Under the pieces are notes generated by a model that saw nothing but the letters and a program-made list of their open reading frames with translations, had not been told where the DNA came from and searched no databases. Below are positions 1 to 27,863 of a stretch of DNA of 64,000 nt, piece by piece. Every line of letters begins with the position of its first letter. Position 1 is the first letter of the stretch. A program made the translations under genes and the position numbers. The stretch is from positions 1 to 64,000 of the forward strand of contig LATX02000253.1 of NCBI GenBank assembly GCA_001466705.2, in the 5' to 3' direction. This DNA is from Moniliophthora roreri (taxonomy: Eukaryota; Basidiomycota; Agaricomycetes; Agaricales; Marasmiaceae).

Positions 1-171
1 ACCCCTAACCCCTAACCCCTAACCCCTAACCCTAACCCCTAACCCCTAACCCCTAACCCTAACCCCTAACCCCTAACCCCTAACCCTAACCCCTAACCCC
101 TAACCCCTAACCCTAACCCCTAACCCCTAACCCCTAACCCTAACCCCTAACCCCTAACCCCTAACCCCTAA
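1..171. repeat. Left telomere, C-rich strand, mixed CCCCTAA/CCCTAA
   Basis: The window opens with an uninterrupted run of CCCCTAA and CCCTAA units, the C-strand orientation expected at the left end of a chromosome. After the first four 7-base units the order is strictly three CCCCTAA then one CCCTAA, a 27-base super-repeat. The single 6-base units lie at 30-35, 57-62, 84-89, 111-116 and 138-143. The last four units are all 7 bases. Non-telomeric sequence starts at 172. Confidence 0.97.
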
Positions 172-429
172 GTGCCCATCAGCTCAGTCCCATCTGTGTA
201 TAAGGGGTGTGACTTGCACTGAGGTAAGTCTTGAGGATCATTAGGTGGTGTTTGTGGCATCTGTTCCTGATTCAACACAAGGCTGCTTTTGTTACACAAA
301 GACACCTGGTTGTTGACCGACTGACATACAAGTTGTACAAGCGATCCTACACCACTGAGAGTCATAACAGTGACTTGTGCTGATGTGGAACTTGATGTCT
401 GTGATGGAGAGCCATTAGTGAGTACATTG

Positions 430-4239: not shown

Positions 4240-6271
4240 AGGCTAAGCTCATTGTGCTCTCACTGAATCAAGATGTAGTGTGTTTACCCATGACTGGGCA
4301 ACTACAGTCTGCATGCAACGTGATTTCCACTTTGGTGAGGAGGATCCAACTTACTTTCCTTAGCTCTTTTCCATTGAATGCAGTCACCTATCTGTCATTC
4401 TGTGTCCCAATGTTAACCCATCTAGCCCCCATGCTTTTGCCTGGTACAAGCTGCAAGTCAAAGACTTTGAGTTCTTCAATGCCAATACCTCTTCTATATA
4501 TGGAATTGGGTGATTTTCACAATCAGTAATCAATTGTGCTACAAAACTGGAGTGATCGATCATGGACAAAATGTCAAAAATCTTCCAGAGTCCTTCATGT
4601 GCAGCAGATTTATTTGAGAGGCTTTATCCAAGCAATGTGCAGGAGATGAGAAAGGACCAGCACCTCAAGAGGTACTCATTTGGTTTGCAAGTCATCTCAG
4701 CTTGTCTCAGAGCTGCTGGTGAATTCAAGAGAACTGCAATGACACTTGCCCTTTTGCAATGAATTTACTTGGAGATGTGGGTGCGACTAGAGTGGCTCAC
4801 ACAATACAAACCCAAGATTGACAGCCTGTACAGTACCATGCCTGCTTGCAAACCTTCTAACATCGTGGGTGCTTGTGTCAGGAGTATGATCACTGCCTGG
4901 CATCTTCTACATGCAGGTGGGTCATTTGAGTTCTTTATTGTTATGAATTCTTTTTTTGATGCCTCTATAGAAATACCAGTATGGTTAGCACACAATATCC
5001 AGGAAAAAGAGACTGTCAGAGTGGAAAGATGGCTCCCCATTTCACTACCAGTAGAGGTGCTGACACTTGCTCTCTCTGATGCTGATCCAGCATATGCCAC
5101 TCTCTATAAGGGATTCATTGACCCATCTCAGCCCTACATTCATTACAAGTCCATGGCTCAGTATCTTGCTAATGCAATTGATCAGAATGCCTTTATGCCG
5201 AGCACAAACCTGTACAATTTCAGCCTTACTTCCCCCTGTGATCCCCAGGCTGGCCCATCTCAAAGTTATTGAATGTCACTTAATCAATGACAACCATGTA
5301 AGTTCTTAATTATCAGATTTTTACCCTTAGACTTATGTGTTACATGCAGATCCTCAAAGAAGTAGCAAGAGGCAGCCTAGTACCACCCAAAACAAATTCA
5401 TTGACATTGAGTCCATCTTGTTGCCAAAGGCATTGAAGCAATGGACAAATGCTTCATGTGATGCTGGTCAGGGATACTACATTAATGATCACAAACCTGC
5501 TGGATATGCCTTACCTGACCCAAACATTATAGTGGGGACTGCAAAACAAGCAACTTGTGCTTCATTCTTTGCAGCATACCTCAAGCTATGAGAGGTGTTG
5601 AGTATTGCTAACTGGCAGTCAGTACCCAGTATCAAAGTGTATGGTCAGAACAAGGGAAAACCTGCTTTTCAACAGTGGAAAGAGGTTGGAGACTGTGCTG
5701 AATAAATGTTTCGACGAGGGCAACTTGAAGGTAAGGTAGTTTTCTATCTTGCTTCAACCCAACAGGCTAATGCTTGTGCTCACAACAGAGTACAATTGAC
5801 TTATGGAGGCTTGAGAACATTCACATGTTTTAGCATAGTCAGGCCCTCCAGCAGATTGTCGAGAAACCAACTGGTGTTGGGAGCTGCTTTCAATGGACCA
5901 ATGTCACTATTGTGGTCCCTTAACACCATCTGAACGCAAGGCCAAGGTGCTGGGGAGCATTTGGCATTTTAGGAGCAAGTTAATTCCAAGTGCCCTCAGC
6001 ACTGGTATAGTGGGGTTTGCATCAACTGATTTGACAGAATGACAGGTGGCTCTGAAGGGTCTATATGATGTCATGGCAGATTGGCAAACTGAAGAGGAAA
6101 GTCTGCCATGGACTCTGGCCAAGGACACATTCAGAAAGCAACTTGATATTAACAAAACGAGTGACTTAATTCTGATGGAGTTTGAACATATGGAGTTTGC
6201 ATTGGTCCATCATTATGTATCAGTCTTTTGCACTACATTTGGATGTGCCCTGCAACTCCCTCATCAACTTT
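4240..6271 (+). pseudogene. Decayed plus-strand gene of unrecognised family
   Basis: Successive plus-strand segments look protein-like but lie in different frames. One at about 4410-4760 includes MDKMSKIFQSPSCAADLFERL. One at 4769-5272 includes SMITAWHLLHAGGSFEFF and ETVRVERWLPISLPVEVL. An end piece with LAHLKVIECHLINDNH runs into a good fungal-type intron at 5298-5349 (GTAAGT to GCAG, 52 bases). Further pieces are 5350-5590, 5596-5700 (SIKVYGQNKGKPAFQQW) and 5940-6271 (VLGSIWHFRSKLIPSAL). The order and uniform style suggest one multi-exon gene, now frameshifted. I do not recognise its function. Its place between two transposon relics and its decay suggest a transposon accessory or a repeated host-like gene, which is inference only. 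Confidence 0.5.
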
Positions 6272-6453
6272 GATAGACTTTTTTAATACTATATAATGTT
6301 CTTGATAAAATCTACCTACTGAACTTACATAACTCATGCAATTTTTTTTGGGGAATTATGTGGGTACTGGTCTTTGTGACATTGCCTGTCTCCACAGTAC
6401 TGATAATCAACTGATAATTGCCTTGCCAGGTTTCATGTGCACTGATAAAGGCA
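6272..6453. other. Junction between opposed relics; nothing seen
   Basis: Short AT-rich stretch where the plus-strand relic and the truncated Helitron relic meet. The helicase half of the Helitron would be expected here and further left, but it is absent. Confidence 0.5.
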
Positions 6454-9291
6454 TTATGAAGCAGGTCTCTGTCTTATTATAGCTGATAAGGAGATCATGA
6501 TGGCCGACCTCTTATAACCAAAAATTAAATTTTCCAACATATACTGGAACATTACCATTACAACTGTTCCACACCCAATAGGCTTTGCATCCATGTTACA
6601 CCTTTCAGCAACCATGATGAGTGGATTATGGCCATTTACAAACCCATTATTGCATCTGAGGACAACATTTCCATCTTCATCAAAATGAGTTGCATCAACA
6701 AGATCCCTTGAAAGCATAAACTGACAATCCTTATTATCATCTCGGAGAGCATGCATTCTTGCTGGGAGATGTTTGTAGCAGGTGTCACTGTGAGTGTGAA
6801 TCATAGCTGAATTCTCTAAGATATCCCTCAAGTCTTGATTAAACTTCTCCCAAAATTGTAGATCATGAGGATTCATAGAACGACTCATTACAAGCTGTCT
6901 CTTGTACATTCCAGGCTTCTAGATGTAAGGGTGGGTGTTTTCAGGCATGTTGCGAGAAAATATGTCATTATACCACTTAGTAAGTTTTTCTTTAAGCTCA
7001 GGTTCACTTTCACACTTTCTCAGTTCAATAGGTGACAGCCCACCTTTAAGCCAAATCAACAGATGAATATGAAGTCGACCTTGACCTTGTGCTTCAACAA
7101 CACCATAGTACACCTCAACCTCTCCAAAAACCCCCTTCCTACTCTCTCTACCTGCTTCAAGAAGAATTTCAAGCATATTCTTAACACAGATGTGGAAAAA
7201 CTCTGCTCCTGCAACAGGATTTAGTGATATAAATGTGGAGTGTTCAAGGTTTTCTGCTGTTGGCTTGAGATCATGGAAGAATTTATCAAGATCAACATTT
7301 CATCCTGCTAGAACTTGAGCAATAGGACTATTTGTGTCTGATGGATTGAGAGTAAGAAATACATGGGGAAGCCCATTGGTGTTGACAATTGAAAACATCT
7401 CTTCTTGCATACTTTGAATCTTTGCAATTGATCCTGGAAGGTGATCACCCACATAATTGACATATTTCATTAGTTTGGCTGCAGCCTTCTCACCATCTGA
7501 TTCTGGATGTGCAAATGGGTTGGTTTTCAGCTTCTCAGAGTACTCTCTGATAGTACTTTCTGATATCATATTAAATAAAGCATCAACTCAAGGGAACCAT
7601 GAGTGATCAACAGCAAGACAAGCATTATATGAGGTCTGTCGACATTGCATAATATTGTAGACAATAAACATGAAAGACAAGTGAGTCTGAAAGTGACAAT
7701 CTGAACCACTCTGCAGAAGATGTGATACATGAGTTTTCATCTCAACTTCCTGAAACTATATTGAGTCATTTGCATGAACATCATTGTTTTCCATCATACC
7801 AACACCATATGGAAATAGTATTGGCCATGGATAGCCAAATATCTTTGGATTGTTTCTTGTTGGCTCAGGTGTTACACCAGAGGGATACTTGATAAATATT
7901 CCACCTGCTTTCAGTCATTCAAGAGCTGCAAGCTTCCAGCTTTAATATGTAGAAGCAACATTATCTGCATCAACTACTGTTGAGGATGGCATTCCCAGAG
8001 GTGAAACATTCTCATTAAAAGCCTTATCATCTGCCTGCTGTGTGTAGGATGCACCTTCACCAGCACTTGAGCTGATTCTAATAATACTCTGCACTGGGAT
8101 TGGTACCCCATCTTCAGGGTAACTTGCAGCATTAGTGTCAATAGCATCAAGATTTAGGTCTGCATACAGAGGATTGTTGTGATAGAGCCATCAGAGTGCA
8201 TTGACTATTCATGAGTGATGAACAAGCAGAGGTGTCCGCTTCAACATGTCAGCAGTTACTTCTGTATCAGGTGAGCCAACAAAGATAACAGATATTTCAT
8301 CATGCAGCTGAGTAAGAGGTGGAGGCAAGCATGTTGCTAAAAGTGTTGGGTTTTGAGGTAGAATATACACATTACCTCTTGATGCAAATTGGCCAGTGGG
8401 TCCCATCTCAAGCTTAAACATACATTTGGTGGTCCTTGCATGAGCAATACACTGCTCTTCAAGGAAAGTCAGACCTTTAAGCTCCTCAGGAACATCCCCA
8501 GTCCACAAACCATTTGCATAGCTTTGAACAGGAATCTGAGTAAACTGATGAAATTGAACTTCCTGCTTACAAAGGCCACAGAGGCAGTAAGAATCATTGG
8601 TAATGGTCTCAGAGCAATATGCTTGAATTGCAGGTTGGCAAGATTTGATGTGAAGCTCATCAACAGCATGCTGCAATAATGAAATATCTAGTTCACCACA
8701 AGGGATAAATGTGACATTGCAAGTGAATTCAAGCCTACCACAGAATGAACATCCTGAGCACTGAAGGGAAGCACTACTAGTTGCATTATAGTAGTCCTGC
8801 AAGATTTCCAATTTTTCTGAAAGTGTGAGTGGATTCAGCCAAGAGCTGTCATCAGGATTAGACACATAGTTAGTAGGATTATTGTGTTGTTGAGGTAGAC
8901 TAAATACAGAGGAGTGAGAAGTTGAGCCAGAGAAGATGCCTGTGGTTCAAGTTCTTTTCAATGGACAACTATCTTCAGCACTACCATTAGCATTTTGTTT
9001 ACACAAAGCTTGAGAACAGCCTAGTTTTAATTTTAATAGGTTAGAATTCTGTATAAAATCAGTCTGAGACAATAGTGGCACATCTGCATAACATGCAGCA
9101 GCTGCATGCTCACACCATATCAAACATGATGAAGTACAGTAATGGGCCTGAAACTCTTCACAAAGCTCACCAGTACTCTTCTTCTTACCATGTAGGCCAT
9201 GTTGAGCAGAGATACCAACATGTAAGGTGCATAGTTTCTGCAAGTCATTGATTGAGAAGGATGTACAAGAGGCTAGCTTCGTTACAACCAC
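6454..9291 (-). pseudogene. Helitron Rep relic, helicase part missing
   Basis: Minus-strand blocks match the N-terminal half of fungal Helitron Rep-helicases. From 9291 downward there is a SAP-like stretch (NDLQKLCTLHVG). At 8865-8209 comes a block with paired cysteines (CSGCSFCG, CLCGLCKQ) and NGLWTGDVPEELKGLTFLEE. At 7569-7300 is the Helitron-like N domain with PHVFLTLNPSD. At 7176-6919 is the rolling-circle HUH signature (EAQGQGRLHIHLLIWLKG). At 6909-6454 is NGHNPLIMVAERCNMD with an eroded region where the catalytic tyrosines should be. Stops and frame changes separate the blocks. The PIF1-like helicase domain that normally follows is absent, so the element is truncated as well as broken. 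The ends typical of Helitrons (5' TC, 3' hairpin plus CTRR) were not found. Confidence 0.85.
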
Positions 9292-9469
9292 ACATTTCTG
9301 ACCAATGGAGATGGGGATAAAGTGACTGGATACATAGGTATAACATCAAGTAGAGGGAGATATGGACTGAGGATATATTCGAGTGGTTTCAGTTTCATTG
9401 TCAGCATTCATTTCATTGTCATCGTTGTCTCTATCATTATTATTTGCATATGACAGGGCAGTGGGCCCA

Positions 9470-12457
9470 GGTTGGTATACTCGGTATACCAGTTATACTC
9501 AGGGCAGTATACTTGGTATACCAAGGTATGCTCAGTTATACTCAGGTCAGTATACTCAGTATACTAGGTGTACCCAGGTATACTGAGGTTGGTAGACTTT
9601 GTATATCAGGTATACCAAGATATACTCAGGTTGGTATGCTCAGTACACTCAGTATACATGGTATACCAAGGTATACTCAGGTTGGTATACTTGGTATATT
9701 AGGTATACCCAGGTATACCAGGTATACAAAGGTATACTCAGGTTGGTATACCAGATATACCAAGGTATGCTCAGGGTGGTATACTCAGGACACTAGGTAT
9801 ACTAGGATATACTCAGCTTGGTCTACTTAGTATACAAAGTCATACTGAGGTCAGTATACCTGAATATACCTGGTATACCGAGTATACCAGGTATACTCAG
9901 GTATACTCAGGTCGGTATACTCGGTATACCAGGTATACTCAGGTATACTCAGGTGGGCATACTCGGTATACCAGGTATACTCAGGTATACTCAGGTATAC
10001 TCAGGTCGGTATACTTGGTATACCAGGTATACTCAGGTATACTCAGGTCGGCATACTCGGTATACTAGGTATACTCAAGTATACTCAGGTCGGCATACTC
10101 GGTATACCAGGTATACTCAGGTATACTCAGGTCGGTATACTCGGTATACCAGGTATACTCAGGTATACTGAGGTCGGCATACTCGGTATACCAGGTATAC
10201 TCAGGTATATTCAGGTATACTCAGGTCGGCATACTTGGTATACCAGGTATACTCAGGTATACTGAGGTCGGTATACTCAGGTATACTCAGGTCGGCATAC
10301 TCGGTATACCAGGTATACTCAGGTATACTCAGGTCGGCATACTCGGTATACTTGGTAAACCAGGTATACTCAGGTATACTCAGGTCGGCATACTCGGTAT
10401 ACCAGGTATACTCAGGTATACTCAGGTCGGTATACTCGGTATACCAGGTATACTCAAGTATACTGAGGTCGGCATACTCGGTATACCAGGTATACTCAGG
10501 TCGGTATACTTGGTAAACCAGGTATACTCAGGTATACTCAGGTCGGTATACTTGGTAAACCAGGTATACTCAGGTATACTCAGGTGGGCATACTCGGTAT
10601 ACCAGGTATACTCAGGTATACTCAGGTATACTCAGGTCGGTATACTTGGTATACCAGGTATACTCAGGTATACTCAGGTCGGCATACTTGGTATACCAGG
10701 TATACTCAGGTATACTGAGGTCGGCATACTCGGTATACCAGGTATACTCAGGTATACTCAGGTCGGCATACTCGGTATACCAGGTATACTCAGGTATATA
10801 TACTTGGTAAACCAGGTATACTCAGGTATACTCAGGTGGGCATACTCGGTATACCAGGTATACTCAGGTATACTCAGGTATACTCAGGTCGGTATACTTG
10901 GTATACCAGGTATACTCAGGTATACTCAGGTCGGCATACTTGGTATACCAGGTATACTCAGGTATACTGAGGTCGGCATACTCGGTATACCAGGTATACT
11001 CAGGTATACTCAGGTCGGCATACTCGGTATACCAGGTATACTCAGGTATACTCAGGTCGGTATACTCGGTATACCAGGTATACTCAGTTATACNTATACC
11101 GAGTATGCCGACCTGAGTATACCTGAATATACCTGAGTATACCTGGTATACCAAGTATGCCGACCTGAGTATACCTGAATATACCTGAGTATACCTGGTA
11201 TACCGAGTATGCCGACCTCAGTATACCTGAGTATACCAACCTCAGTATACCTGAGTATACCTGGTATACCGAGTATACCAACCTCAGTATACCTGAGTAT
11301 ACCTGGTATACCGAGTATACCGACCTCAGTATACCTGAGTATACCTGGTATACCGAGTATGCCGACCTCAGTATACCTGAGTATACCTGGTATACCGAGT
11401 ATACCGACCTGAGTATACCTGGTATACCAAGTATGCCGACCTGAGTATACCTGAATATACCTGAGTATACCTGGTATACCGAGTATGCCGACCTCAGTAT
11501 ACTTGAGTATACCTGGTTTACCAAGTATACCGACTACTCAGGTTGGTATACTCAGGTATACTGAGGTATACCAGGTATACTCAGGTATACTGAGGTATAC
11601 CAGGTATACTCAGGTATACTGAGGTCGGTATACCAGGTATACTCAGGTATACTGAGGTCGGTATACTCAGGTATACTCGGTATACCAGGTATACTCAGGT
11701 ATACTGAGGTCGGCATACTCGGTATACCAGGTATACTCAGGTATACTCAGGTCGGTATACTCGGTATACCAGGTATACTCAGGTATACTCAGGTATACTC
11801 AGGTCAGTATACTCGGTATACCAGGTATACTCAGGTGTATACCAACCTGAGTATACCTGAGTATACCGACCTCAGTATACCTGAGTATACCTGGTGTACC
11901 GAGTATGCTGAGTATACCAACCTCAGTATACCTGAGTATACCTGGTATACCGAGTATACCGACCTGAGTATACCTGAGTATACCTGGTATACCGAGTATA
12001 CCGACCTCAGTATACCTGAGTATACCAACCTCATTATACCTGAATATACTGAGTATACCAACCTCAGTATACCTGAGTATACCTGAGTATACCTGGTATA
12101 CCGAGTATACCGACCTGAGTATACCTGGTATACCGAGTATGCCGACCTGAGTATACCTGAGTATACCTGGGCATACCTGAGTATACCTGGGCATACCTGA
12201 GTATACCTGAGTATACCTGGTATACCGAGTATACCTGAGTATACCTGGTATACCGACCTCAGTATACCTGGGTTTACTTTGTATACTTGGTATACCAATC
12301 TCAGTATACCTGGGTAAACTGAGTATACTGATCTGAGTATACTGAGTATACCGAGTTACCAACCTTAGTATACCTGAGTATATCTGGTACACTGAGGTCA
12401 GTATATGGTATACTTGGTATACCCAAGCATACTGAGGTTGGTATACTCGGTATATCC
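9470..12457. repeat. GTATAC minisatellite, about 3 kb, 42-bp higher-order unit
   Basis: The array is built from 9-14 base monomers each carrying the palindrome GTATAC (variant GCATAC). The commonest higher-order unit is 42 bp: a 13-base GGTCGGTATACTC, a 9-base GGTATACCA and two GGTATACTCA. For example, GGTC starts fall at 10088, 10130 and 10172. Extra 10-base monomers lengthen some units. Orientation flips at 11094 (marked by an N), about 11534 and about 11837, so blocks run forward, reverse, forward, reverse. Long open frames here (YTQVYSGILR-type repeats) come from the stop-free unit, whose 42-bp length keeps frame. They are not genes. Confidence 0.95.
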
Positions 12458-12485
12458 AGTACCATGTTTCTAATTTAAGTATTCC

Positions 12486-12680
12486 AACCCTAAAGACTTG
12501 GTAAATTTTAGCTATATTAGTCTGGTATACCCAGTGTGACTATATTTTGAACCCTAGACACTTGGTAAATTGTAGCTATATTAGTTTGGTATACCCAGTG
12601 TGACTGTATTTCTAACCCTAAAGACTTAGTAAATTTTAGACAAATCAGTTTGGTATACCCAGCATACCGAGGCTCAGTAC
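12486..12680. repeat. 64-bp tandem repeat, about three copies
   Basis: The motif ACTTGGTAAATT recurs at 12496, 12560 and 12624 (third copy ACTTAGTAAATT), exactly 64 bases apart. Each copy is followed by a GGTATACCCAG box that resembles the neighbouring GTATAC monomers. This looks like a degenerate edge of the minisatellite or a source of its monomer. Confidence 0.8.
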
Positions 12681-17870: not shown

Positions 17871-18375
17871 GCAATGACTAAGGCGCCTAGCAGGTAAGCG
17901 CACGCTAGTAGGAGCGCCCGGCCATAGTCGGTCCCGGTATCGGTTGTCACGGCTGATGCCGGATAGCCGCCCGTGGTCGGTTGTGTCCGAACTTGGCGCG
18001 CGTCTATTTTAACGCCCGAGATCTCGGTGATCTCGGATCATTAGTCATACTCCGATATGCCCGACTTGGACTCCGGCTATCGGTAAGAAGAGTAAGCGAA
18101 CCGGCGGCTTCGGTAACCGCCGAGAAACTTCGAGAATTAACTCGTTTTGTCTTTCTCTGGTCAACTAACCAAGATATTATTATCGCGCCCTTTGCCCTAG
18201 GGCCTAGGCGCGTTATTCTTATCATCCAATAGCGAACAGGTCCTGAAGAGCACAATGCGAAACAGGACGTTGGTCTTGGTTGCTTTCAACCATCACCTGT
18301 TGGCCTGCTTCGCATCCATAAGCCTCTTTTCAACGCCCCCCGGCCCTGCTGAGTTATAGAAACACCCCTAACCCA
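17871..18375. mobile_element. Segment Z2 ending in a telomere-like CACCCCTAACCC
   Basis: GC-richer than its surroundings and again placed directly after ATAAGATAGTTAG. Its right end shares GGTCCTGAAGAGC, CACCTGTTGGCCTGCTT, CCCCGGCCCTGCT and the terminal CACCCCTAACCC with Z1. The left halves of Z1 and Z2 are only loosely similar (TTAGTCATAC in both). No open reading frame worth reporting. Confidence 0.4.
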
Positions 18376-18558
18376 GTTTTTTGCAATTTATTTCAAAACC
18401 GGATTTCAAGAAAAGATACTGACTATAGCTGTTTCCTAGTACTTATTGGATGTTAGAATAAGGGAAAAAAATTTTGTACAAAGTAAATCATGGGAACCTC
18501 CAATTTGGGCCAAAAAGGATTTTAGGCCACAATGTAGCATTATGGTGGAGACATACCT
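18374..18558. repeat. 185-bp fragment duplicated at 26683-26868
   Basis: From AGTTTTTTGCAATTT to ACATACCTATAG the sequence is nearly identical to 26683-26868. It sits between segment Z2 and a truncated Y block. The longer context at 26 kb suggests that locus, or a relative of it, is the source. Confidence 0.85.
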
Positions 18559-18802
18559 ATAGGTGGAGCAATCTGAAGAAAAAAAATTAATTAGCATCCT
18601 TGCTTGCTTAATTCATTGTCATCCAGGTATCCACATCCTCAGTTGCTACCTGCTGATCACAAAAATACATGGACTCCACATCCCCAAAAAATGCCCTGGG
18701 AGGGTCTCATGGCCAAAATAAGTGACTGATTATGTGGTGGGAGGCTTCCCTCAGAAAGACATTTGGTGGGGATGTGGCTCCACATCCCAATATAAGATAG
18801 TT
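18559..18802. repeat. Truncated copy of block Y
   Basis: AGGTGGAGCAATCTGAAG through ATAAGATAGTTAG repeats the 3' two thirds of block Y, with the usual final GTTAG. Confidence 0.85.
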
Positions 18803-19789
18803 AGTGTTTTTGAAGTCAGTGCTAACCTCCCTGACTCAGTATCTCAATGTACTCCTCATACCTTCACACAATTCTAGCCAACTCAAATACCACTTCCACT
18901 CCACTAGTAGCGTTTTCAAAGCCGGCGCTAACCTCCCTGACTCACTACCTCAATATCTTCCTCGTACCTCCATACTTTTCCACCCAACTCAATAACTACT
19001 TCCACAAGGACGGAATAGGATCACCTGAGACCCATCCCAGGGTACTTGACGTTGCCGAATCCACTGGTAACCTTTTCGAACCCGGCGCTATCCTCCCTGA
19101 CTCACTACATTGATGCCTTCCTCCTACCTCCACATGTTTCTACCCAACTTGATCACTGCTTCCACAGATCCAAAGTCGTGCACCACAGGCTTGTTCCTGG
19201 GGTATTCCATATCGACCAATCCATTGGTATCATTTTCGAACCCAGTGCTAACCTCCCTGACTCGGTACGTTGATGTCCTCCTCATACCTCCACACTTTTC
19301 TACCCAATTTGCTAACCACTTCCACAGATCCAAATTCACCCACCAGAGCCTTGTTCCTAGGGTATTCCACATCGACCAATCCATTGGTAACGTTTTCGAA
19401 CCCGGCGCTAACCTCCCTGACTCACTACCTCGATGCCTTCCTCGTACCTCTACACATTTCTACCCAACTCGAATACCACTTCCACAGATCCAAATTCAAT
19501 CACCAGAGCCTTGTCCCTAGGCTATTCCACGTCGACCAATCCATTGGTATCATTTTCGAACACCGCGGCGTCCTCTCTGACTCACTATCTCCATGTCCTC
19601 CTCGTACCTCCTTACATTTCTACCCAACTCAAATACCACCTCCACCGATCCAAATCCGATCATCAGACCGTCGTTCCCAACGTATTTGACGTCGACGAGT
19701 CCATTGGTAGCCTTTTCGAACCCGGCGCTATCCTCCTTAAACCAGTACCTCAATATTTCCGTACTGCAATATCCTAACCAAAGTCCCAT
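18803..19789. repeat. 160-bp satellite, about 6.5 copies
   Basis: The anchor CTGACTCA (or a close variant) falls at 18831, 18937, 19097, 19257, 19417, 19577 and 19737. All spacings after the first are exactly 160 bases; the first is 106, a 54-base deletion. Copies differ by substitutions but hardly by length. Open frames run through several copies, but 160 is not a multiple of three, so the satellite is not a repeated coding unit. Confidence 0.9.
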
Positions 19790-20292
19790 TCACTCGGCGG
19801 TAAAGACAGCGCCCGAGGAACCCACAAATTCCATTATGGAGTTTTTCGCATCGCTGAACACGATGGTGATGTCAGCAAGACTGCTAGACGTCACTATCAT
19901 CGGCGTTGCCGTTGCTCACTGCACACGCGCTCTCACCTGGATACCCAACCGCCCAGGAACCTTCTATAGCCTCTGGAACGACGGTTACGACGAATTCGTC
20001 GTTACATCTGTTCACAGAGGCTGCAGGAAGACCGGCGGGTGATGGGGAATGGGTAGGAAGACGGATGAGGAGGTGAGGTACGTAGTAGGTGCCATAGCGA
20101 CGAAACGACCTCAGCGCCGGCTTCGCTGACGTCGTAATCGTGTTCAGCGACCCAGGAAACCCCAGGAGAGGTCTCCTGGCGGCTTCGGAGCTGCTGGTTG
20201 TGTCCGGAAGCAGGGTAGGAGGAGAGGGTGGTGCTGGTGTCGAGATCGAATGAAAGACGACGTCGCTGATCTTCGGNAGGGAATCAGGGAGG
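19790..20292 (-). pseudogene. Module 1 long exon-like segment
   Basis: The minus-strand reading contains SVN..NDEFVVTVVPEAIEGSW and SLADITIVFSDAKNSIMEFV, ending GAVFTAE and a stop at 19790. The 55-base nested palindrome spans 19968-20022. A gap N at 20277 lies 15 bases from the acceptor. It is the most diverged full module. Confidence 0.45.
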
Positions 20293-20474
20293 CTGTAGGA
20301 GAAAGCAGAAGGTCAGTGAAACGAGATAAAGGTCAGTTTTGGGTACGCACCTTGTACCCTGTACCTCAGCCGCTCTCCCTCCTTCCAGCTTCCTCCACCT
20401 TTCTTGTAGCCAGTATACAGACCTAAAATAACAGTATTAGTTGTAGGAATAAAAATATAAGAAAAAAAACGTAC
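20293..20474 (-). other. Micro-exon cassette a (72-nt micro-exon 20351-20422)
   Basis: Read on the minus strand: donor GTACGT and acceptor TTTTAG bound a 52-base intron (20423-20474). The micro-exon is 72 bases. The next intron is GTGCGTAC to CTACAG (20293-20350, 58 bases). Both introns have the length and borders typical of agaric introns. Confidence 0.6.
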
Positions 20475-21238
20475 CTTTTACAATGTCGCTGCCACCGTCG
20501 TGGTGGTAAGAGAGAAAGAGCGTGTGTCACACGTAGTCACACACGCTCGATGATAACGCCGGCGCCGAGAGACCCCAGAATCGTAATTCTGGGGTTGTCG
20601 ACGTCTCCGAGCACGATGGTGGTGTCGGCGTAGCTGCACGATGCTTCCATCGTGCTCGTATCCATCCTTGCCACCCCCACTTTGTAGCTGCCTAGAGCTG
20701 CTGCAAAATTACCATCCAGAAGGCCGTCTATAGCCTCTGGAACCACGGCAACGATGAATTCATCGTTGTCGGTGTTCACAGAGGCTGCAGGAGCGAGTGG
20801 ATGGAGTGGACAATCCGTAGGAAGGGGAACGAGGAGGCGAGGGCGGTGAAAGTCCATCGAACGACCAAACGACGGTGTTGGTGGAGTCCGCTGATGCCGG
20901 AAATGGATTCAGCGACCCAAAATACGCCAGAACGGACAGTCCGGCGTATTCGGGCGCTGGCGTTTGAGTCCGGAAGCGGGGGTACGAGGAGATGGTGGTG
21001 TCGGTGTTGAAATCTAGGTGAAGATGACGTCGCGAGTCTTCGGCGACGTCATATCCGTGTTCAGCGGGTAGGAAAACCCCCAGGAGAGTTTTCCTGGAGG
21101 CTCTGGCGTATTCGGTTCGGGCTGGGGATGTTGACTTTGGTGGAAGGCCAGCTATGTGAGGTGGCGGGTTGTTGAGTGTTTCGGAGGCGACGTATGACGG
21201 CGGAGACGTAGGAAGTAGCGTAGAGGGAATCAGGGAGG
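20475..21238 (-). pseudogene. Module 2 long exon-like segment
   Basis: Best-preserved reading: ASVNTDNDEFIVAVVPEAID, then SCSYADTTIVLGDVDNPR, then LGSLGAGVIIERV and a stop at 20537. Palindromes: 55-base at 20732-20786, GCACGATG/CATCGTGC at 20636-20655, 22-base at 20573-20594, 31-base at 20518-20548. Upstream stems include AATACGCC/GGCGTATT and ATGACGTCGC/GCGACGTCAT around 20920-21055. The right part, from about 20773, is repeated 1749 bases further on. Confidence 0.5.
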
Positions 21239-21422
21239 CTGTAGGAGAAAGCATAAGGTCAGTGAAACGAGATAAAGGTCAGTTTTGGGTACGCACCTTG
21301 TACCCTGTACCTCACCGCTCTCCCTCCTCCTTCCAGCTTCCTCCGCCTTTCTTGTAGCCAGTATACAGACCTAAAATAACAGTATTAGTTGTAGGAACAA
21401 ATATATAAGAAAAAAAACGTAC
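21239..21422 (-). other. Micro-exon cassette b (74-nt micro-exon 21297-21370)
   Basis: Introns 21371-21422 (52 bases) and 21239-21296 (58 bases) flank a 74-base micro-exon nearly identical in sequence to cassette a but two bases longer. The extra two bases mean the frame is not kept between copies. Confidence 0.6.
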
Positions 21423-22023
21423 CTTTTACAATGTTGCTGACACCGTCGTGGTGGTAAGAGAGAAAGAGAGGATGTGACACAAAGTCACATCCTCTCGATG
21501 GTAACGCCGGCGCCGAGAGACCCCAGGATAGTGTACCTGGGGTTCTCTAGGTCGCCGGATACGATGGTGGTGTCGGTGAAACCGTACGACACCCCATTCT
21601 GGTCGTGCCGCCTTGACTTTGCAGCTCAATACCTGCAGCTGCATAGTTGGCACCCGGGAAGCCTCTCGTAGCCTCTGGAACGACAGCAACGACGAATTCG
21701 TCGTTGTATCTGTCCTCAGAGGCTGTAGGAGGATCCGGGTGTAACGGCGTATGCGTAGGAGGGGATATAAGGAGGAGAGGATGGTGGAAGTCCGCCGAAC
21801 GATATAATCACGGCGTCAGCGAGTTACGCTGACGCCAGAATCAGATTCTGCGACCCAGAAAGCACCCAGAGCGAAGAGTCTGGGGCTTTGGGTGCAGGCG
21901 TTGAAAGCCGGAGGGCGTACATGTGCGTAGTGGGTGGCTGATCTCTGCGGCGGCTATCCAAGGTGAAAAAGGTCAGCGGGGGCTCCTATTTGCGTGGGAG
22001 ATAGTCCAGAGGGTATGAAGAAC
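21423..22023 (-). pseudogene. Module 3 long exon-like segment
   Basis: Contains NDEFVVAVVPEATRGFPG and, in another frame, TDTTIVSGDLENPRYTILGS then LGAGVTIERM and a stop, so it carries at least one frameshift relative to module 2. Palindromes: 55-base at 21670-21724, 25-base at 21569-21593, 22-base at 21521-21542, 31-base at 21466-21496. A perfect GGCGTCAGCG/CGCTGACGCC stem lies near 21803-21827. Confidence 0.45.
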
Positions 22024-22215
22024 CTGTAGATGAAGGGAGGAAAGCCGGAATAAGAGGGGGGGAAAAAAAGGCAAAGACCTTTACAACGTACCTCGTACCC
22101 TACACTACACCTATTCTCCCTCCTACATCTGCTCCTCCCAACCCTCTAAAGCACGTATATAGACCTGTACACCCTAAGTTAGCGTAGAAAAGCAAAATAA
22201 ATCAAAAATACGCAC
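22024..22215 (-). other. Micro-exon cassette c (73-nt micro-exon 22092-22164)
   Basis: Introns 22165-22215 (51 bases, GTGCGT to TACAG) and 22024-22091 (68 bases, GTACGT to CTACAG) flank a 73-base micro-exon starting GTCTATATACG, the diverged counterpart of GTCTGTATACTGG in cassettes a and b. Confidence 0.6.
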
Positions 22216-22987
22216 CTTCTTTGCTTGTTCGTGGACGGTCGTGATGGTAAGAGGAAAAGAGAGATGCCATGATGTACACAGCCTCTCGATGGTAACGCCG
22301 GCGCCGAGAGACCCTAGAGTAGCATTTCTGGGGTTCTCGAGGCCGAGGAATGCGATGGTGGCGTCAGCGCAGGTGCCGGATACCTCTATCGTGGGTGTTT
22401 CAACCGGCGTGCACCATGCCTAGCCACCTGGTATAGCACGACATTCGAGGCTCTCCATCTAGCCTCTGGAACGACATGAACAACGAATTCGTTGTTCTGT
22501 GCGTGCTCAGAGGCTGGAAAAGGCCTCGNGAGGCTGCAGGAGCGAGTGGATGGAGTGGACAATCCGTAGGAAGGGGAACGAGGAGGCGAGGGCGGTGAAA
22601 GTCCATCGAACGACCAAACGACGGTGTTGGTGGAGTCCGCTGATGCCGGAAATGGATTCAGCGACCCAAAATACGCCAGAACGGACAGTCCGGCGTATTC
22701 GGGCGCTGGCGTTTGAGTCCGGAAGCGGGGGTACGAGGAGATGGTGGTGTCGGTGTTGAAATCTAGGTGAAGATGACGTCGCGAGTCTTCGGCGACGTCA
22801 TATCCGTGTTCAGCGGGTAGGAAAACCCCCAGGAGAGTTTTCCTGGAGGCTCTGGCGTATTCGGTTCGGGCTGGGGATGTTGACTTTGGTGGAAGGCCAG
22901 CTATGTGAGGTGGCGGGTTTTTGAGTGTTTCGGAGGCGACGTATGACGGCGGAGACGTAGGAAGTAGCGTAGAGGGAATCAGGGAGG
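22216..22987 (-). pseudogene. Module 4 long exon-like segment, joined at an N
   Basis: The left part reads SGTCADATIAFLGLENPRN then LGAGVTIERL and a stop, with AQNNEFVVHVVPEA upstream. The 55-base palindrome lies at 22461-22515 and the 22-base one at 22312-22333. The 31-base position has only a short GAGAG/CTCTC stem. From the N at 22529 rightward the sequence duplicates module 2 (20780 onward) almost exactly, so this segment may be an assembly chimera. Confidence 0.4.
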
Positions 22988-23171
22988 CTGTAGGAGAAAG
23001 CAGAAGGTCAGTGAAACGAGATAAATGTCAGTTTTGGGTACGCACCTTGTACCCTGTACCTCACCGCTCTCCCTCCTTCTTCCAACTTCCCCCGCTCTCC
23101 TTCTTGCTCCTAGATGGTCCTAGAAGAAAGATATCAGTGAAAAAAAGACAAAGGGAACCAAAAAAACGTAC
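22988..23171 (-). other. Micro-exon cassette d (74-nt micro-exon 23046-23119)
   Basis: Introns 23120-23171 (52 bases) and 22988-23045 (58 bases). The 3' half of the micro-exon matches cassettes a and b; the 5' half (GACCATCTAGGAGC) is different. Confidence 0.6.
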
Positions 23172-23745
23172 CTTTCAGGTTCGTTGCTGCCTCGTGGTGG
23201 TGGTAAGAGAGAAAGAGAGGATGTGACTTTGTGTCACATCCTCTCGAAGGTAACGCCGGCGCCGGAAGGTCCCAGATTCGAAAATCTAGGATTTTCAACG
23301 TCGGGGAAGAAGATGGTGGTGTCAGCGCAAGTGGCTGACACCTTCATCGTGGGCGTTTTAGCTGAGGTGCACGACGTCTTGGTACCTGGTATAGTACGGC
23401 ACTCGAAGCTCTTTCTCTAGCCTCTGGAACGACATGAGCAACGAAAACGTTGTTCTGTGCGTACTCAGAGGCTGGGGAAAGGCCTTGGTCGTGCTAGGGA
23501 AGGTGCTAATGGTGGAAGTTTGGCCTCTGTGGGTGTACGTCGTCGACGTGCAATGGTATGCGTCGATCCGCATTGGTTTGGATGCGAGTAGGGTTTTGTA
23601 AGGCGAGTAATGCACTTTGAGATGGGTTCTTGGATGTGAGGCGGGTCCTACGCTTGCGAGACGGGTTCTGAACTTGCGAGATGGACCGGTTCTGAGTACT
23701 TGGGTGCCATTGCAATGGGCATTCGTCGCCGGAGATGATACAAGG
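23172..23745 (-). pseudogene. Module 5 long exon-like segment
   Basis: Reads AQNNVFVAHVVPEARE, then VSATCADTTIFFPDVENPRF, then SGAGVTFERM and a stop. Palindromes: 55-base at 23419-23473, 25-base GGTGTCAGC/GCTGACACC at 23318-23342, 22-base at 23270-23291, 31-base at 23215-23245. The part above about 23490 has no counterpart that I can align to module 2. Confidence 0.45.
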
Positions 23746-23930
23746 CTGTAAGAACTAAAGAAACCGTTAGAAGAATCCAAAAAAGTACGAATTAAGCACG
23801 CACCTTTAATACTCTATCCTCTGCCCTTCTCCCGCCCTCTCCTTCAGCTTTTCTCCCTCCAAAGTCTTGTATATAGCCTGAAGATAATGTAGTCAGTAGA
23901 ATAGAACCAAATGAATGAAAAGAAACTCAC
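23746..23930 (-). other. Micro-exon cassette e (74-nt micro-exon 23804-23877)
   Basis: Introns 23878-23930 (53 bases, GTGAGT to TTCAG) and 23746-23803 (58 bases, GTGCGT to TTACAG). The micro-exon begins GCTATATACAAG and ends ATTAAAG. It is the most diverged minus-strand cassette, yet it keeps the same lengths. Confidence 0.6.
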
Positions 23931-24009
23931 CTGTCTTTGTTTCCTCACCGACGTTGTGATGGTAAAAGATCAAGAGAGGCTGCACAGCCTCTCGGACACG
24001 CGGCACTGC
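23931..24009 (-). pseudogene. Module 6 edge, next to an inversion
   Basis: Only the donor-side end of a minus-strand module is present: the CTCTT..TTACCATCACAACG stretch and a perfect stem GAGAGGCTG/CAGCCTCTC at 23974-23993. A plus-strand module starts immediately to the right. Confidence 0.4.
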
Positions 24010-24690
24010 ATCACGTCTCCGACGATCGATTTGCTCTTTGATCTCTTACCATCACCACGGCCATGTACTAGCACCCACAGGTAAGTTCTTTCTTATTTCT
24101 TTCATTCCTTTCTACTCAATACTCTCCTACAGGACTATCTACTTGAACTTGGAGGGAGGTAGGATGAAGGAGAAGCAGGGAGAATGGAAGAGGTCAGGAT
24201 TCCCGGTGCGTAGCGACTTTTGTTACATTTTTCTTGGCTCTTACCTTTCCTTTTGCTTTCTACAGCATCTACGGACCTCTGCTGACCGTATCTTGGAATA
24301 CCACGGAATCAAATGTACTCTCCGGCGTCACCAACTCGCAACGGCTTCGGCTCTATCTTTCCAATAACCAACAAACCAACACCCTTTCAGCCACCTTCCC
24401 CAGCGCCCAGAGACTCCAGAAGCATGCTTCGGGATATGCTGTACCATATTCCGCTGTCAGCTGAGCATTCCGATGCTGTCTGCCTATCGGTCGGCGCAGT
24501 ACTATGACTCTTACGTCCTCAACTCATTTCCGCCACATTCCTAAGCGCCGAGTGAGTCCCGAATTTCACTTCTAGTGTTTTCTAGGTTGCTGAATTCGAT
24601 TCTGGTGTCAGCGGATCCTGCTGACGCCATCTTCCCTTTGATCGACACCCTGGCTGGACCCGCACCTCTCCCATCATGACCACTTACCGT
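24010..24690 (+). pseudogene. Module on the plus strand, 73-nt micro-exon 24133-24205
   Basis: It starts with CTCTTTGATCTCTTACC, the same pyrimidine stretch that precedes the donor in the minus-strand modules. An intron (GTAAGT to CTACAG, ending 24132) is followed by a 73-base micro-exon with GACTATCTACTTG at its start, then an intron of 60 bases (24206-24265). The long segment after it contains the stem GGTGTCAGC/GCTGACGCC near 24605-24630. It points away from module 6, giving a head-to-head inverted pair. Confidence 0.45.
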
Positions 24691-25010
24691 CTATAGCCTC
24701 TGCGAATATGAAGAACAATGCATTCATTGTTCTCGCTGTCTCAGAGGCTAGTCGGCACCTCTGTAAGTGTTCATGTGGGTTAGGTTGCAGGTTGAGTTGA
24801 TGGGTTTCATCAAACTCGGGTGAAGCTGACCAGAGTACCAGCCTCTCGTCAGAGACGAGAGGCTGCTTTGGAGCTCCATACTGAGTTTGATGGGATCCTT
24901 TAAACTCAGTCATAGAGCTGGCACCCTGGCACACTCTTCGTCGGGGACGAAGAGTGGTATTAGCACCACAATTGCCGAGGTACATGAGTGATGAACTACA
25001 TCAACTCGGG
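24690..25010 (-). pseudogene. Outer module remnant with 55-base palindrome
   Basis: The palindrome AGCCTCTG..CAGAGGCT is at 24695-24749, again exactly 55 bases, with core AACAATG/CATTGTT. The minus-strand reading ASETARTMNALFFIFAEA replaces NDEFVVAVVPEA, so the peptide is lost while the fold is kept. Confidence 0.45.
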
Positions 25011-25300
25011 TGTAAGTGCCAGGGTATACGCCGTATCGTCGTAGACGTTACGATGCATGCTCCGGAACCTTTCCTGAGTGATGTAATTCATATCAACTCA
25101 GGTGGAAAGGTGCCAGAACATGCATCGTAACGTCGGGGACGTTACAGTGTACCTGCAGGCACCTCCCAAGAGATGTAATACATCAGCTCGAGGTCAGAGT
25201 GCTAGAGTATGCATTGTAACGTCCCCGACGTTACGGTGCTTGTTCTAGCACCTTTCCCGAGTGATGTAAATACTTGGCGTATGTGAGAGCACCCACAGCT
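24770..25300. repeat. Five tandem fold-back units of about 90-100 bp
   Basis: Hairpin centres lie at about 24852, 24944, 25047, 25136 and 25226. Most stems have the form stem-GTC-N3-GAC-stem. The first two are perfect 11-base stems (24840-24864 and 24932-24956). The last two extend into imperfect fold-backs of roughly 25 paired positions with GGTGCC/GGCACC or GTGCTAGA/TCTAGCAC at the base. The flanks repeat GAGTGATGTAAT and ATCAACTCAGG. No protein coding is evident. Confidence 0.75.
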
Positions 25301-25740
25301 CTTGTCCCGAGGTTCTGTAAAAAAGTAGGCAATGGTCTATTGCCCACTCAGTGCTTTGGATAGATAGTCAGTATATAAAAGTTAGATGAATGGAAAAAAA
25401 ACTTACCGTTGCGTGTCGTTGTCGTGGTACGAGAGAGGGGTGAGCTTACAAGCGCTGGCCAGCGCTTAACAACGGACAGTGTCTGTTCATTAGCGCTGGT
25501 CGGCGCTTAGCAACGGACACTGTCTGTTCATAAGCGCCAATGTGAAAATAAATAGTATTAACAATATATAAAAATATAATGATATATTAAAGGAAAAAGA
25601 GTAGTGTCTCAGATCTACTACTATTTATGGTAAGTAAAAAGAGAGAGGCGTGATGGATCCGTCACGTCGCGGATCCGTCCGAATGAGACATTCGGCGGCA
25701 GTTATATGAGTAAAAGAGCTATGTACAGATTCAATTGACT
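25301..25740. other. More palindromes and decayed module ends
   Basis: A minus-strand donor-like end (CTCTCGTACCACGACAACG then GTAAGTTT) lies near 25400-25440. Palindromes include GCGCTGGCCAGCGC near 25444 and AACGGACAGTGTCTGTT near 25470. They suggest further eroded modules. Confidence 0.45.
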
Positions 25741-26682
25741 ATTAAAGCTATTGTAGAGCTTATTGAATATGTATAGACTTGTTGGGATACCTGGTAAGGC
25801 CATATAATATGTGGAAGACTCAATACAGACTTGTAAGCAGGATTTCACATACTCCTAGGAATCTAGAAAAGATCAAGGCATATCTTGAGAACCACTGGAG
25901 CTCTGAACTGAAAAAGAATATTCTCATGATAAGAAAAATACTTCTGTCATTTTGACCTATCAAACATGTCATTTGGGTCAGTAGACAACCCAATTTGCAA
26001 TCACAACCTCAATTCAGGTAGTATTTTAATGTTTGACATGCAGTAGCAAATATAGTGATCAGATTGATTAAAAAACCTATATAACAACTCCTGGTACCCA
26101 CCTTGACATGCTGAAACACACCTCAAAGCCGTGTAATCCATACAATCCTGAATGCAGAGCTATAACCAAAAGTTCAAAAAACTACTTGCAATAAAATAAA
26201 GATCAGCTTATATTTTGGAAGCCACTTGTGCCATTGACTAGATAGAGATACTCCCATGAGCAGAAAAATATCCCTGTCATTTTGAGCCATTAAGCCTGAA
26301 ATTTGGATCAGTACAAGCATCAATACAAAGTACCACTCTTAAAATAGATAGTATTTTCAAAGTCTATATGCCAAAAGGGATGTGGTGATCCAGGCAGCTA
26401 GAAAAGCTATTTTACAGACTATTGGATATCTACTGGCACACTGAAACACCCACCAAGGTATTGTGATCACTGGAAGACCCAATGTACATGTATAAGTAGA
26501 AGTTCGAAAATTGGCAGCGGTAAAACAAAGATCAGGTCATATCTTGAGAACAACTAAAGCTATTGACTAGCAAGAGATAGCCCCATATTCAGACAGTATA
26601 CAAGAGCATTTTGAGGTATGTATCATGACAGTCTGATCAGCTGGAGTCTCAATGTGCAAGCCTTTTCTCAAAACTAATAGCA
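25740..26682. repeat. AT-rich degenerate tandem repeat, about 330 bp, three copies
   Basis: The phrase AAAGATCAGG..ATATCTTGAGAA and variants recurs at about 25872, 26196 and 26527. The phrase TGTCATTTTGA and its flank recurs at about 25945, 26275 and 26610. Copies are heavily diverged, implying age. No coding sequence seen. Confidence 0.65.
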
Positions 26683-26868
26683 GTTTTTTGCAATTTATTT
26701 CAAAAGGGGATTTCAAGAAAAGATACTGACTATAGCTGTTTCCTAGTACTTATTGGATGTTAGAATAAGGGAAAAAAATTTTGTACAAAGTAAATCATGG
26801 GAACCTCCAATTTGGGCCAAAAAGGATTTTAGGCCACAATGTAGCATTATGGTGGAGACATACCTATA
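26683..26868. repeat. 185-bp segment shared with 18374-18558
   Basis: Nearly identical to the fragment at 18.4 kb, far better preserved than the 330-bp repeats just to its left. The two copies therefore separated recently or are maintained by exchange. Confidence 0.85.
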
Positions 26869-27863
26869 GATGCCCCGCCTTTATGGTGTTTGGTATGGCG
26901 TTCGAGACGCGCGAGCCATGTTCTCTCTCCTTCCGAAACTCCAAGGGCTACTTCTCCTCCCGCCTCTCTGAGATCCTAGCATTTTGAGAATCTTCATAAC
27001 GTGGAGGGGAATGGATATTAGATTAGCGTTGGCTGTGGGAACGAGACATGAGCGTCAGAACATATAAGGCACCGGAAGGACTATTGTACCCTGATGACGA
27101 TGGGATACTGTGTTCCGGTGTCTTCTGAGTCATGAACCAGATTAACTTCAAACATGGAGCTGAAAATTATGAAGATGATGTTAACGAACCCACAAGCATT
27201 CAGCGTTCACAACTCACCTCATCTTCATGATGTCCCTAGTGATAGGCAACGTTCGCTAAAGGTATACAGCACCAGCGTGAGAAATGGGTGAGTCAGCACG
27301 CCAAAATTTGTTCTTGTTCTCTTCCGTCATGTCGTCGCGTCACTGAAGTTGCTCTGCGTCCGGCATGAGCAAAAAAGTACCATGTTGAGGTACAAGTGGG
27401 TACTTTGTTATATCCATCTCTTTCTTTCATCCTGATCATTACATTGCAGGTAACGAACATAGTTCAAGTTGGATGTATTCGCCGGTAACTGGAAGATGGG
27501 TCTTTATGAGGCACGAATGTGAATCTTTATCGCTTTCATATTCCTTGATTTCTCATTAGTTGTGCTGTATCAACGCTCCTTTCTGTAGAACAATCACTTT
27601 TGGCAACGTTCTGCAATTTGTTGCTCGACGTCACCCCCTAAGCTATTCGACCACAATCAATCCTTTATTCCCTCACAACTAGTCAATCACGTCACTCGCA
27701 TTCTCCTCGAGTTGTCTTTTACGTCGACCGAAGGCATTTCGGAAGTCATCGAAACTGAATAACAGTTGCTTTTCACCACTCGCAGCACCCTAAACTCAAT
27801 CTTCCTACTCCATCGTAATTCCGTATCCCCATGTGTTTAATCATCGGCTAACGTACTCCCCGC
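26869..27863. other. No gene recognised
   Basis: Base composition shifts to about half GC and CpG becomes common. Only short open stretches occur on either strand. I see no repeats or RNA genes. Confidence 0.5.

What the first reader, a model, noticed from the sequence alone, without database searches (positions are those of the whole stretch)
19790..25010. Undescribed modular array: spliced-looking units full of structure-conserving palindromes
At least six diverged modules share the same plan: long segment, intron of about 52 bases, micro-exon of about 73, intron of about 58, next long segment. Within the long segments, hairpins lie at fixed distances. Measured in modules 2-5, the 22-base hairpin starts 24 bases after the end of the 31-base position every time (20548/20573, 21496/21521, 22287/22312, 23245/23270), and a fourth hairpin starts 48 bases after that in modules 3 and 5. 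The linker between the hairpins (around TAACGCCGGCGCC) is almost invariant, while the stems change on both arms together. I know no gene, satellite or transposon family with this design. A structured spliced RNA, a structure-bearing repeat, or a fast-evolving protein family with structured DNA are the options.
Basis: partly seen in the sequence, partly recalled or inferred. Interest (0 to 1): 0.93.

Follow-up and report, generated by a model that had tools for sequence, protein, structure and literature searches.

The report
Palindrome-packed, spliced-looking non-coding repeat arrays
Near a chromosome end of a cacao-disease fungus sits a family of repeat blocks that carry well-kept intron signals but no protein, packed with mirror-image DNA hairpins that look as if DNA copying errors keep them symmetric, rather than selection for a folded RNA.

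Summary
The modules belong to a dispersed family in this Moniliophthora roreri genome: 26 array regions on 15 contigs and 55 near-full intron cassettes among the stretches fetched. They are read on the minus strand of the window, 20-25 kb from a telomere. They are not protein-coding: no codon periodicity, and 89% of gaps break frame. Splice signals are kept (5' GT in 51/55 and 53/55 copies) while intron interiors drift, and CpG is intact (0.99) where the first 9 kb of the window are depleted (0.13). This suggests an active, spliced non-coding locus; transcription was not testable. Hairpins are about nine times denser than in shuffles, and stem changes are coupled (33 compensated doubles, 3.4 expected). 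But broken pairs are G·U no more often than A·C (39 vs 53), the antisense strand folds at least as well, and loops are found inverted between copies. These point to DNA-level palindrome maintenance, such as template switching, rather than selection for a sense-strand RNA fold. Two single Ns (20277, 22529) look like assembly joints, so module count and order here are uncertain. No Rfam match, no Pfam match over cut-off, and no listed paper describes it.

The parts
1..171 (.). telomere repeat (CCCCTAA/CCCTAA)n; the window starts at a chromosome end
18806..19790 (.). 160-bp tandem repeat next to the array; elsewhere found by one search only in C103
19780..24000 (-). array of hairpin exons and intron cassettes, sense on the minus strand
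20293..20474 (-). intron cassette: intron 1 20423-20474, micro-exon 20351-20422, intron 2 20293-20350
21239..21422 (-). intron cassette: intron 1 21371-21422, micro-exon 21297-21370, intron 2 21239-21296
22024..22215 (-). intron cassette: intron 1 22165-22215, micro-exon 22092-22164, intron 2 22024-22091 (last read by eye)
22988..23171 (-). intron cassette: intron 1 23120-23171, micro-exon 23046-23119, intron 2 22988-23045
23755..23930 (-). intron cassette: intron 1 23878-23930, micro-exon 23804-23877, intron 2 23755-23803
24034..24748 (+). inverted module: intron 1 24081-24132, micro-exon 24133-24205, intron 2 24206-24265 (read by eye), H1 hairpin 24695-24748
19968..20022 (-). H1 central hairpin (outer arms AGCCTCTG/CAGAGGCT, variable inner stem)
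20732..20786 (-). H1 central hairpin
21670..21724 (-). H1 central hairpin
22461..22515 (-). H1 central hairpin
23419..23473 (-). H1 central hairpin
20518..20548 (-). H4 31-base hairpin
21466..21496 (-). H4 31-base hairpin
23215..23245 (-). H4 31-base hairpin with the loop inverted (ACAAA) relative to the C146 copy (TTTGT)
20573..20594 (-). A hairpin (22 bases)
21521..21542 (-). A hairpin
22312..22333 (-). A hairpin
23270..23291 (-). A hairpin
21569..21593 (-). B hairpin (48 bases on from the A hairpin)
23318..23342 (-). B hairpin
24760..25700 (.). further hairpins upstream of the array, shared in part with C146, C32, C139, C73
20277..20277 (.). N: probable assembly joint
22529..22529 (.). N: probable assembly joint; 22530-23049 is 99.4% identical to 20781-21300

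Best explanation
A multicopy, subtelomere-enriched family of non-coding, gene-like repeat arrays. SHOWN: modules with two constrained introns around a micro-exon of about 73 nt; exons built of short palindromes in mirror order around a central hairpin of about 55 nt (H1); no protein-coding constraint; CpG not depleted, unlike the outer subtelomere; no intron-less copies among the arrays held. INFERRED: the arrays are transcribed from the strand with the splice signals and spliced into a non-coding RNA, and stay in open, unmethylated chromatin. They multiply by DNA-level tandem and inverted duplication. Their palindromes are re-perfected by template switching, in which DNA synthesis copies one arm from the other; this changes both arms together and sometimes flips the loop. 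The role of the spliced transcript is the weakest step. My best guess is that transcription and splicing keep the locus from being silenced as a repeat, while the palindromes feed template-switch-driven turnover of chromosome ends.
For: Family size. Not coding. Splice constraint over 55 cassettes: 5' GT 51 and 53; 3' AG within two columns of its place in 49 (intron 1) and 51 of the 54 with letters (intron 2); branch-point A 0.945 and 0.855; interior means 0.65 and 0.59. CpG o/e 0.99 pooled, 0.85-1.20 in 26 of 26 regions, against 0.13 in the first 9 kb of the window and in an old copy on C90. Coupled arm changes: 33 compensated doubles vs 3.4 expected over 141 hairpins against their closest relatives. 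No G·U excess. Loop inversion: among 762 distinct changed loop pairs the changed loop equals the reverse complement exactly in 5 (reverse 0, complement 0), within one mismatch in 35 (9, 3), and is closer to it than to the original in 98 (48, 63); clearest case H4 TTTGT/ACAAA between copies 96% identical. Antisense folds as well or better. Inverted loops are named as a template-switch footprint in PMC8794818 (passages read). No exon-exon junction in arrays held. A copy within 25 kb of 4 of 8 telomere tracts.
Against: No transcript was seen; transcription rests on splice-signal conservation alone. In the closest-relative comparison single-arm changes outnumber compensated doubles 150 to 33, so pairing is kept only partly; the 3.4 expected assumes one rate for all hairpins, and uneven divergence would raise it. 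Ectopic gene conversion of whole hairpins between arrays would also give coupled arm changes. At the strictest hairpin setting the mismatches lean to G·U (31 to 19 raw; 18 to 12 deduplicated, p 0.36). Eight of 26 array regions lie more than 40 kb from either contig end (C83 twice, C97 twice, C80, C66, C102:122 kb, C146:84.5 kb), so the subtelomeric link is a tendency. Sense orientation towards the chromosome end is mixed. Exactly inverted loops are few (5 ordered pairs), and in the bin of closest copies 0 of 4 changed loops are nearer the inverted form (then 3 of 42, 29 of 195, 91 of 875).
Confidence: 0.58

Rival explanations
1. A spliced structured RNA: the hairpins are selected as RNA stems in the processed transcript, with compensatory mutation keeping them paired.
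For: Covariation above shuffled and slid controls in H1, A and H4; strong folding (z -9.7); conserved splice signals; fixed hairpin spacing in 34 of 38 copies; a slight lean to G·U at the strictest setting.
Against: G·U is no more frequent than A·C among broken pairs in the larger sets; the antisense strand folds as well or better (sense z lower in 13 of 40, p 0.023); loops are inverted; no Rfam match.
Confidence: 0.15
2. A neutral subtelomeric palindromic satellite or foldback-type repeat. The intron signals are relics or pass unselected with recent duplication, and nothing is transcribed.
For: Tandem and inverted arrangement, mirror symmetry around H1, copies near telomere tracts and contig ends, association with other subtelomeric repeats.
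Against: 5' GT stays at 93-96% and AG at about 89-94% (counting slips of up to two columns) while intron interiors fall to about 60-65%. CpG is intact in all 26 regions although the outer subtelomere is depleted to 0.13.
Confidence: 0.2
3. Coupled arm changes come from ectopic gene conversion of whole hairpins between arrays and not from template switching within a hairpin.
For: Many near-identical segments are shared between arrays, so conversion or duplication is frequent.
Against: It does not explain how paired variants arose first, nor loop inversion in H4; the mirror-strand matches shown end before H4.
Confidence: 0.3
4. A fast-evolving protein family.
For: Open frames up to 213 aa; a UniProt gene model exists for one copy.
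Against: No codon periodicity, 89% of gaps out of frame; a sub-unit repeated at 152-bp steps in C32 is not a multiple of 3; no protein relative named outside M. roreri; no Pfam hit over its cut-off among six array ORFs.
Confidence: 0.02

Closest known systems
Selfish palindromic repeats of Volvox carteri organelle DNA (Smith and Lee 2009, PMC2670323; passages read)
   Same: Many short palindromes of about 50 nt with small loops, several sequence families, loops that read TAAA or TTTA (each the reverse complement of the other), palindromes inserted into one another.
   Different: Those are organellar, AT-rich in the mitochondrion, and their nuclear copies are called inert; here the family is nuclear, CpG-intact, arranged in fixed modules and tied to two constrained spliceosomal introns.
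Template-switch-maintained hairpins (Monttinen and Loytynoja 2022, PMC8794818; abstract and passages read)
   Same: Multiple compensated changes and inverted loops as footprints of DNA-level copying between arms.
   Different: Described there for rRNA genes, where stems are also selected as RNA and loop inversion is rare; here a G·U bias is missing.
Satellite DNAs rich in dyad symmetry (search listings only, e.g. PMC13081366, PMC8997354)
   Same: Repeats rich in inverted symmetry in a gene-poor chromosomal region.
   Different: Those are large tandem arrays, usually centromeric (listing abstracts); here short arrays of complex ~900-bp modules with intron cassettes.
TERRA and subtelomeric non-coding RNAs (search listing; rest recalled)
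   Same: Non-coding, often subtelomeric; the C73 array ends within 100 bp of telomere repeat.
   Different: Sense direction relative to the chromosome end is mixed and the arrays are not confined to telomeres.
Foldback transposons with TIRs made of ~155-bp sub-repeats (recalled, not from a call)
   Same: Mirror arrangement, sub-repeats of about 152 bp.
   Different: I found no element ends or transposase in what I looked at (not searched systematically); constrained introns and internal hairpins are not part of that design.

Membership tests
Protein-coding gene family | Reading frame kept between paralogues (3-periodic substitutions, in-frame gaps) | tested here: not met
   chi2 2752 on 4008 df, 10.7% of 8919 gaps divisible by 3. 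No coding positive control could be run.
Described structured RNA (Rfam) | Match to a covariance model | tested here: not met
   Searches (E<=0.1, window 17-27.5 kb; gathering score, 5 loci): 0 matches.
RNA with selected secondary structure | G·U tolerated over A·C; sense strand folds better than antisense | tested here: not met
   the smallest, strictest set leans to G·U without significance. The size of the G·U excess expected in real RNAs is recalled, not measured here.
Spliced non-coding RNA gene | Constrained 5' splice site, branch point and 3' splice site without coding exons | tested here: met
   GT 51/55 and 53/55, AG 49/55 and 51/54 with slips of up to two columns, branch A 0.945/0.855; interior 0.59-0.65.
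Spliced non-coding RNA gene | Transcript with the predicted junctions | not testable with these tools
   No RNA-seq held.
Subtelomeric repeat | Position near telomere repeats | tested here: met
   4 of 8 telomere tracts (C73, C134, C152, C113) have a copy within 25 kb; but several arrays are internal.
TERRA-like telomeric transcript | Transcription directed to the chromosome end | tested here: inconclusive
   orientations against contig ends: C152, C73, C139, C114, C103 towards the end; C131, C146 away; C134 and C101 both ways.
Retrotransposed element | Copies lacking the introns | tested here: not met
   no junction-spanning match in the 19 stretches held; the whole genome was not searched with the junction.
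Template-switch-maintained palindromes | Compensated double changes above independence and inverted loops | tested here: met
   33 vs 3.4; loops inverted exactly in 5 of 762 pairs (controls 0, 0), within one mismatch in 35 (9, 3).
Transposon silenced by CpG methylation | CpG depletion as in the outer subtelomere | tested here: not met
   0.99 against 0.13.

The most novel reading that the evidence does not exclude
A new class of chromosome-end gene: a spliced, non-coding RNA locus whose exons are assembled from self-repairing DNA palindromes, protected from repeat silencing by its own transcription and splicing, and driven to amplify by template switching at those palindromes.
Probability: 0.22. 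Interest if true: 0.85.

Novelty: new variant of a known kind. Interest (0 to 1): 0.62.

Why it matters
It is a natural case where strong base-pair covariation coexists with evidence against an RNA fold. That makes it a test bed for telling DNA-level palindrome maintenance from RNA selection; two simple tests (G·U against A·C, loop inversion) point the same way here. It also poses a direct question: why would a non-coding, palindrome-packed repeat keep its introns in working order and escape the CpG loss that hits the outer subtelomere?

Tried and rejected
Protein reading: Pfam on six array ORFs gave only hits below the cut-off. Of three protein searches, the 172-aa array ORF found itself and an M. 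roreri gene model that matches the C32 array at 100%, the 123-aa array ORF found nothing, and the third named the organism. RNA family reading: Rfam empty. Telomere-directed transcript: orientation mixed. Retroposition: no processed copies in the stretches held. Coding positive control for the periodicity test: a 67% repeat pair in the window showed no periodicity either and out-of-frame gaps, so it is no coding control; no coding pair stood out among the loci; HSP70 loci could not be delivered; so that test has no positive control beyond general knowledge. tRNA control for the G·U test: only one tRNA in the 29 sources scanned, too few. The AG2 count printed as 0 is an indexing slip of mine, and fixed columns understate AG of intron 1 (30 of 55); one search recounts both. 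The H1 alignment (A1) used 32 of the 40 distinct copies, dropping eight whose length was not 55. The A/H4 alignment (A2) used 38 of the 45 rows: I dropped four that lack the H4/splice end, two duplicates and one that ran off a merged locus; leaving out the four may raise the paired percentage. In one search two of five measures do not clear the shuffles (pairs with a change on both sides 37/500, pair types 181/500).
Full report
What it is in. The window is the first 64 kb of contig C152 of a 59.4-Mb, 154-contig assembly and begins with telomere repeat. An F-box ORF beside the C131 array is 100% identical over 78% of its length to Moror_2273 of Moniliophthora roreri MCA 2997, and a weaker relative lies on a 499,417-base contig, the length of our C102, under the name WG66_009525 [M. 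roreri] (contig length). So the genome is M. roreri, the cacao frosty-pod fungus.

Observation. The intron-like segments are introns on the minus strand: for example GTACGT...CTAAT...TAG, a micro-exon of 72-74 nt rich in A and G, then GTGCGT...CTGAC...CAG. A module at 24.0-24.8 kb faces the other way, and a further diverged copy lies at 51.3-52.3 kb. Two Ns inside the interval (20277, 22529) lie next to segments that duplicate neighbours; 22530-23049 is 99.4% the same as 20781-21300. The design itself is not an artefact: arrays without any N exist in C134, C146:81.5-91.5 kb, C80, C66 and C97, and C83 repeats two of the window's modules in the same order.

Family. Lower-bound searches of the own genome led to 26 array regions on 15 contigs, and 68 intron-cassette matches of which 55 are at least 190 nt. 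The pattern AGCCTCTG-N36-42-CAGAGGCT has 62 exact places in the genome against 0 for the reversed pattern (the list of places is capped); some of the 62 are worn single copies (C90, C110) or sit in a dispersed repeat (C68, C100, C118, C145). The H1 pattern is absent from the viral and prokaryote contig collections; no collection of other fungal genomes was at hand. Hairpins lie in mirror order on both sides of H1: of 84 profile matches of at least 200 nt, 41 reach the splice end and 43 do not, the latter, as far as the cut output shows, mostly mirror-strand matches. Four of eight telomere tracts have a copy within 25 kb: C73 (H1 about 75 bases from the repeat), C134, C152 and C113. Eight of 26 regions lie more than 40 kb from either contig end, and sense direction relative to contig ends is mixed.

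Not protein. In 826 pairwise alignments of array copies, 2004 gap-free blocks show no preference of substitutions for one codon phase (summed chi2 2752 on 4008 df; values below df are expected because divergence is high), and only 10.7% of 8919 gaps are multiples of three. The pairs are not independent, and no coding pair was at hand as positive control.

Spliced, probably. Over 55 cassettes the 5' splice GT is kept in 51 (intron 1) and 53 (intron 2), and the branch-point A at 0.945 and 0.855, while intron interiors average 0.65 and 0.59. AG stands within two columns of its place in 49 of 55 (intron 1) and 51 of 54 (intron 2); in fixed columns it is 30 and 47. A strict regular expression finds a complete intron 1 in 44 of 55 and intron 2 in 39 of 55. 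No intron-less junction was found in the stretches held, so amplification looks DNA-borne. Transcription itself was not seen.

Gene-like CpG. The arrays have CpG o/e 0.99 (0.85-1.20 in all 26 regions). Window bases 201-9400 have 0.13, an old copy on C90 0.13, and a dispersed repeat on C68 that carries an H1 fragment 0.14. In the 1-kb profile the array (19-24 kb) stands at 0.88-1.04, with 0.21-0.67 on its telomere side from 14 to 19 kb and 0.30 at 26-27 kb. In contigs such as C134 and C131 the surroundings are CpG-normal too, so the contrast is seen in C152 and not everywhere.

The hairpins: paired, but not as RNA. Density is 4.33/kb against 0.27-0.50. Both-arm changes exceed controls: H1 58 cells against 24.1 shuffled and at most 17 in slid versions; A and H4 60 against 25.6 and at most 29. 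Taking each of 141 hairpins against its closest relative (median flank identity 0.90), 33 pairs changed on both sides and stayed Watson-Crick, 3.4 expected under independence with one common rate (all double changes 47 against 10.2); 150 pairs changed on one side only, 39 to G·U, 53 to A·C and 58 to other mismatches (p = 0.17 for G·U against A·C). Other settings gave 18:12, 89:88, 112:132 and 66:59 after deduplication; the raw count at the strictest setting was 31:19, and the aligned helices give 22:33 (H1), 36:32 (A) and 18:15 (H4). Selection for an RNA fold on the spliced strand should favour G·U clearly (recalled). Sense and antisense of one exon fold equally well (z -9.70 and -9.38; control segment -0.16), and over 40 exons sense is the better strand in only 13 (mean z -6.5 against -7.4, p 0.023). 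The loop of H4 at 23215-23245 reads ACAAA where the C146 copy, 96% identical over about 300 bases, reads TTTGT; an A loop occurs as AGTG and CACT, and a third hairpin as TTATGCCTAAA and, one base off the exact inverse, TGTAGGCATAA. Over 762 distinct changed loop pairs the changed loop equals the reverse complement in 5, against 0 for plain reverse and 0 for plain complement; within one mismatch 35 against 9 and 3; closer to it than to the original 98 against 48 and 63. Inverted loops and multiple compensated changes are the footprints that PMC8794818 assigns to template switching (abstract and passages read). Whole-hairpin gene conversion between arrays remains possible for part of the coupled changes.

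Literature. Searches (open-licence PMC papers only; only the top rows of each are listed) showed no paper that describes this family. The M. roreri genome paper PMC10468315 was read in passages and treats repeats in general terms; a re-analysis of fungal hairpin small RNAs, PMC9757828, searched for four terms, does not name Moniliophthora.

Verdict. A real, unusual non-coding repeat family with constrained introns; the covariation that made it look like a structured RNA is better explained at the DNA level. The function is open. Bench work in this crop pathogen is referred.

Noticed in passing
   Followed up: partly
1-9400: Subtelomeric DNA with CpG o/e about 0.13, with a DUF6570 ORF at 8212-8946 (E 1.5e-24): looks like repeat methylation and CpG decay in this fungus.
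   Followed up: partly
9468-12600: Large satellite of GGTATACT-like units that matches itself on both strands; also present near the start of contig C103.
   Followed up: no
18374-18565 and 26681-26872: A 192-bp repeat, 98% identical in direct orientation on both sides of the array; 15 matches in the genome, several beside other arrays.
   Followed up: partly
18806-19790: 160-bp tandem repeat, found by one search elsewhere only in C103; some units carry splice-like GTACGT and CTAAC..CAG signals (read by eye).
   Followed up: no
L039 (C68:824900-825400): A dispersed repeat with several copies 96-98% alike carries an H1 fragment; the C12 copy lacks the 203-base part that holds H1.
   Followed up: partly
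L040 (C90:119150-120500): A worn array copy with CpG o/e 0.13: similar hairpins with CpG lost.
   Followed up: partly
25016-25257: Hairpins around GTAACGTC..GACGTTAC with inverted copies 46-59 nt long, shared with C32, C139 and C146.
   Followed up: no
11094, 14595, 16827, 17548, 20277, 22529: Single Ns; at several of them near-duplicate segments meet, so they look like unresolved assembly overlaps.
   Followed up: partly
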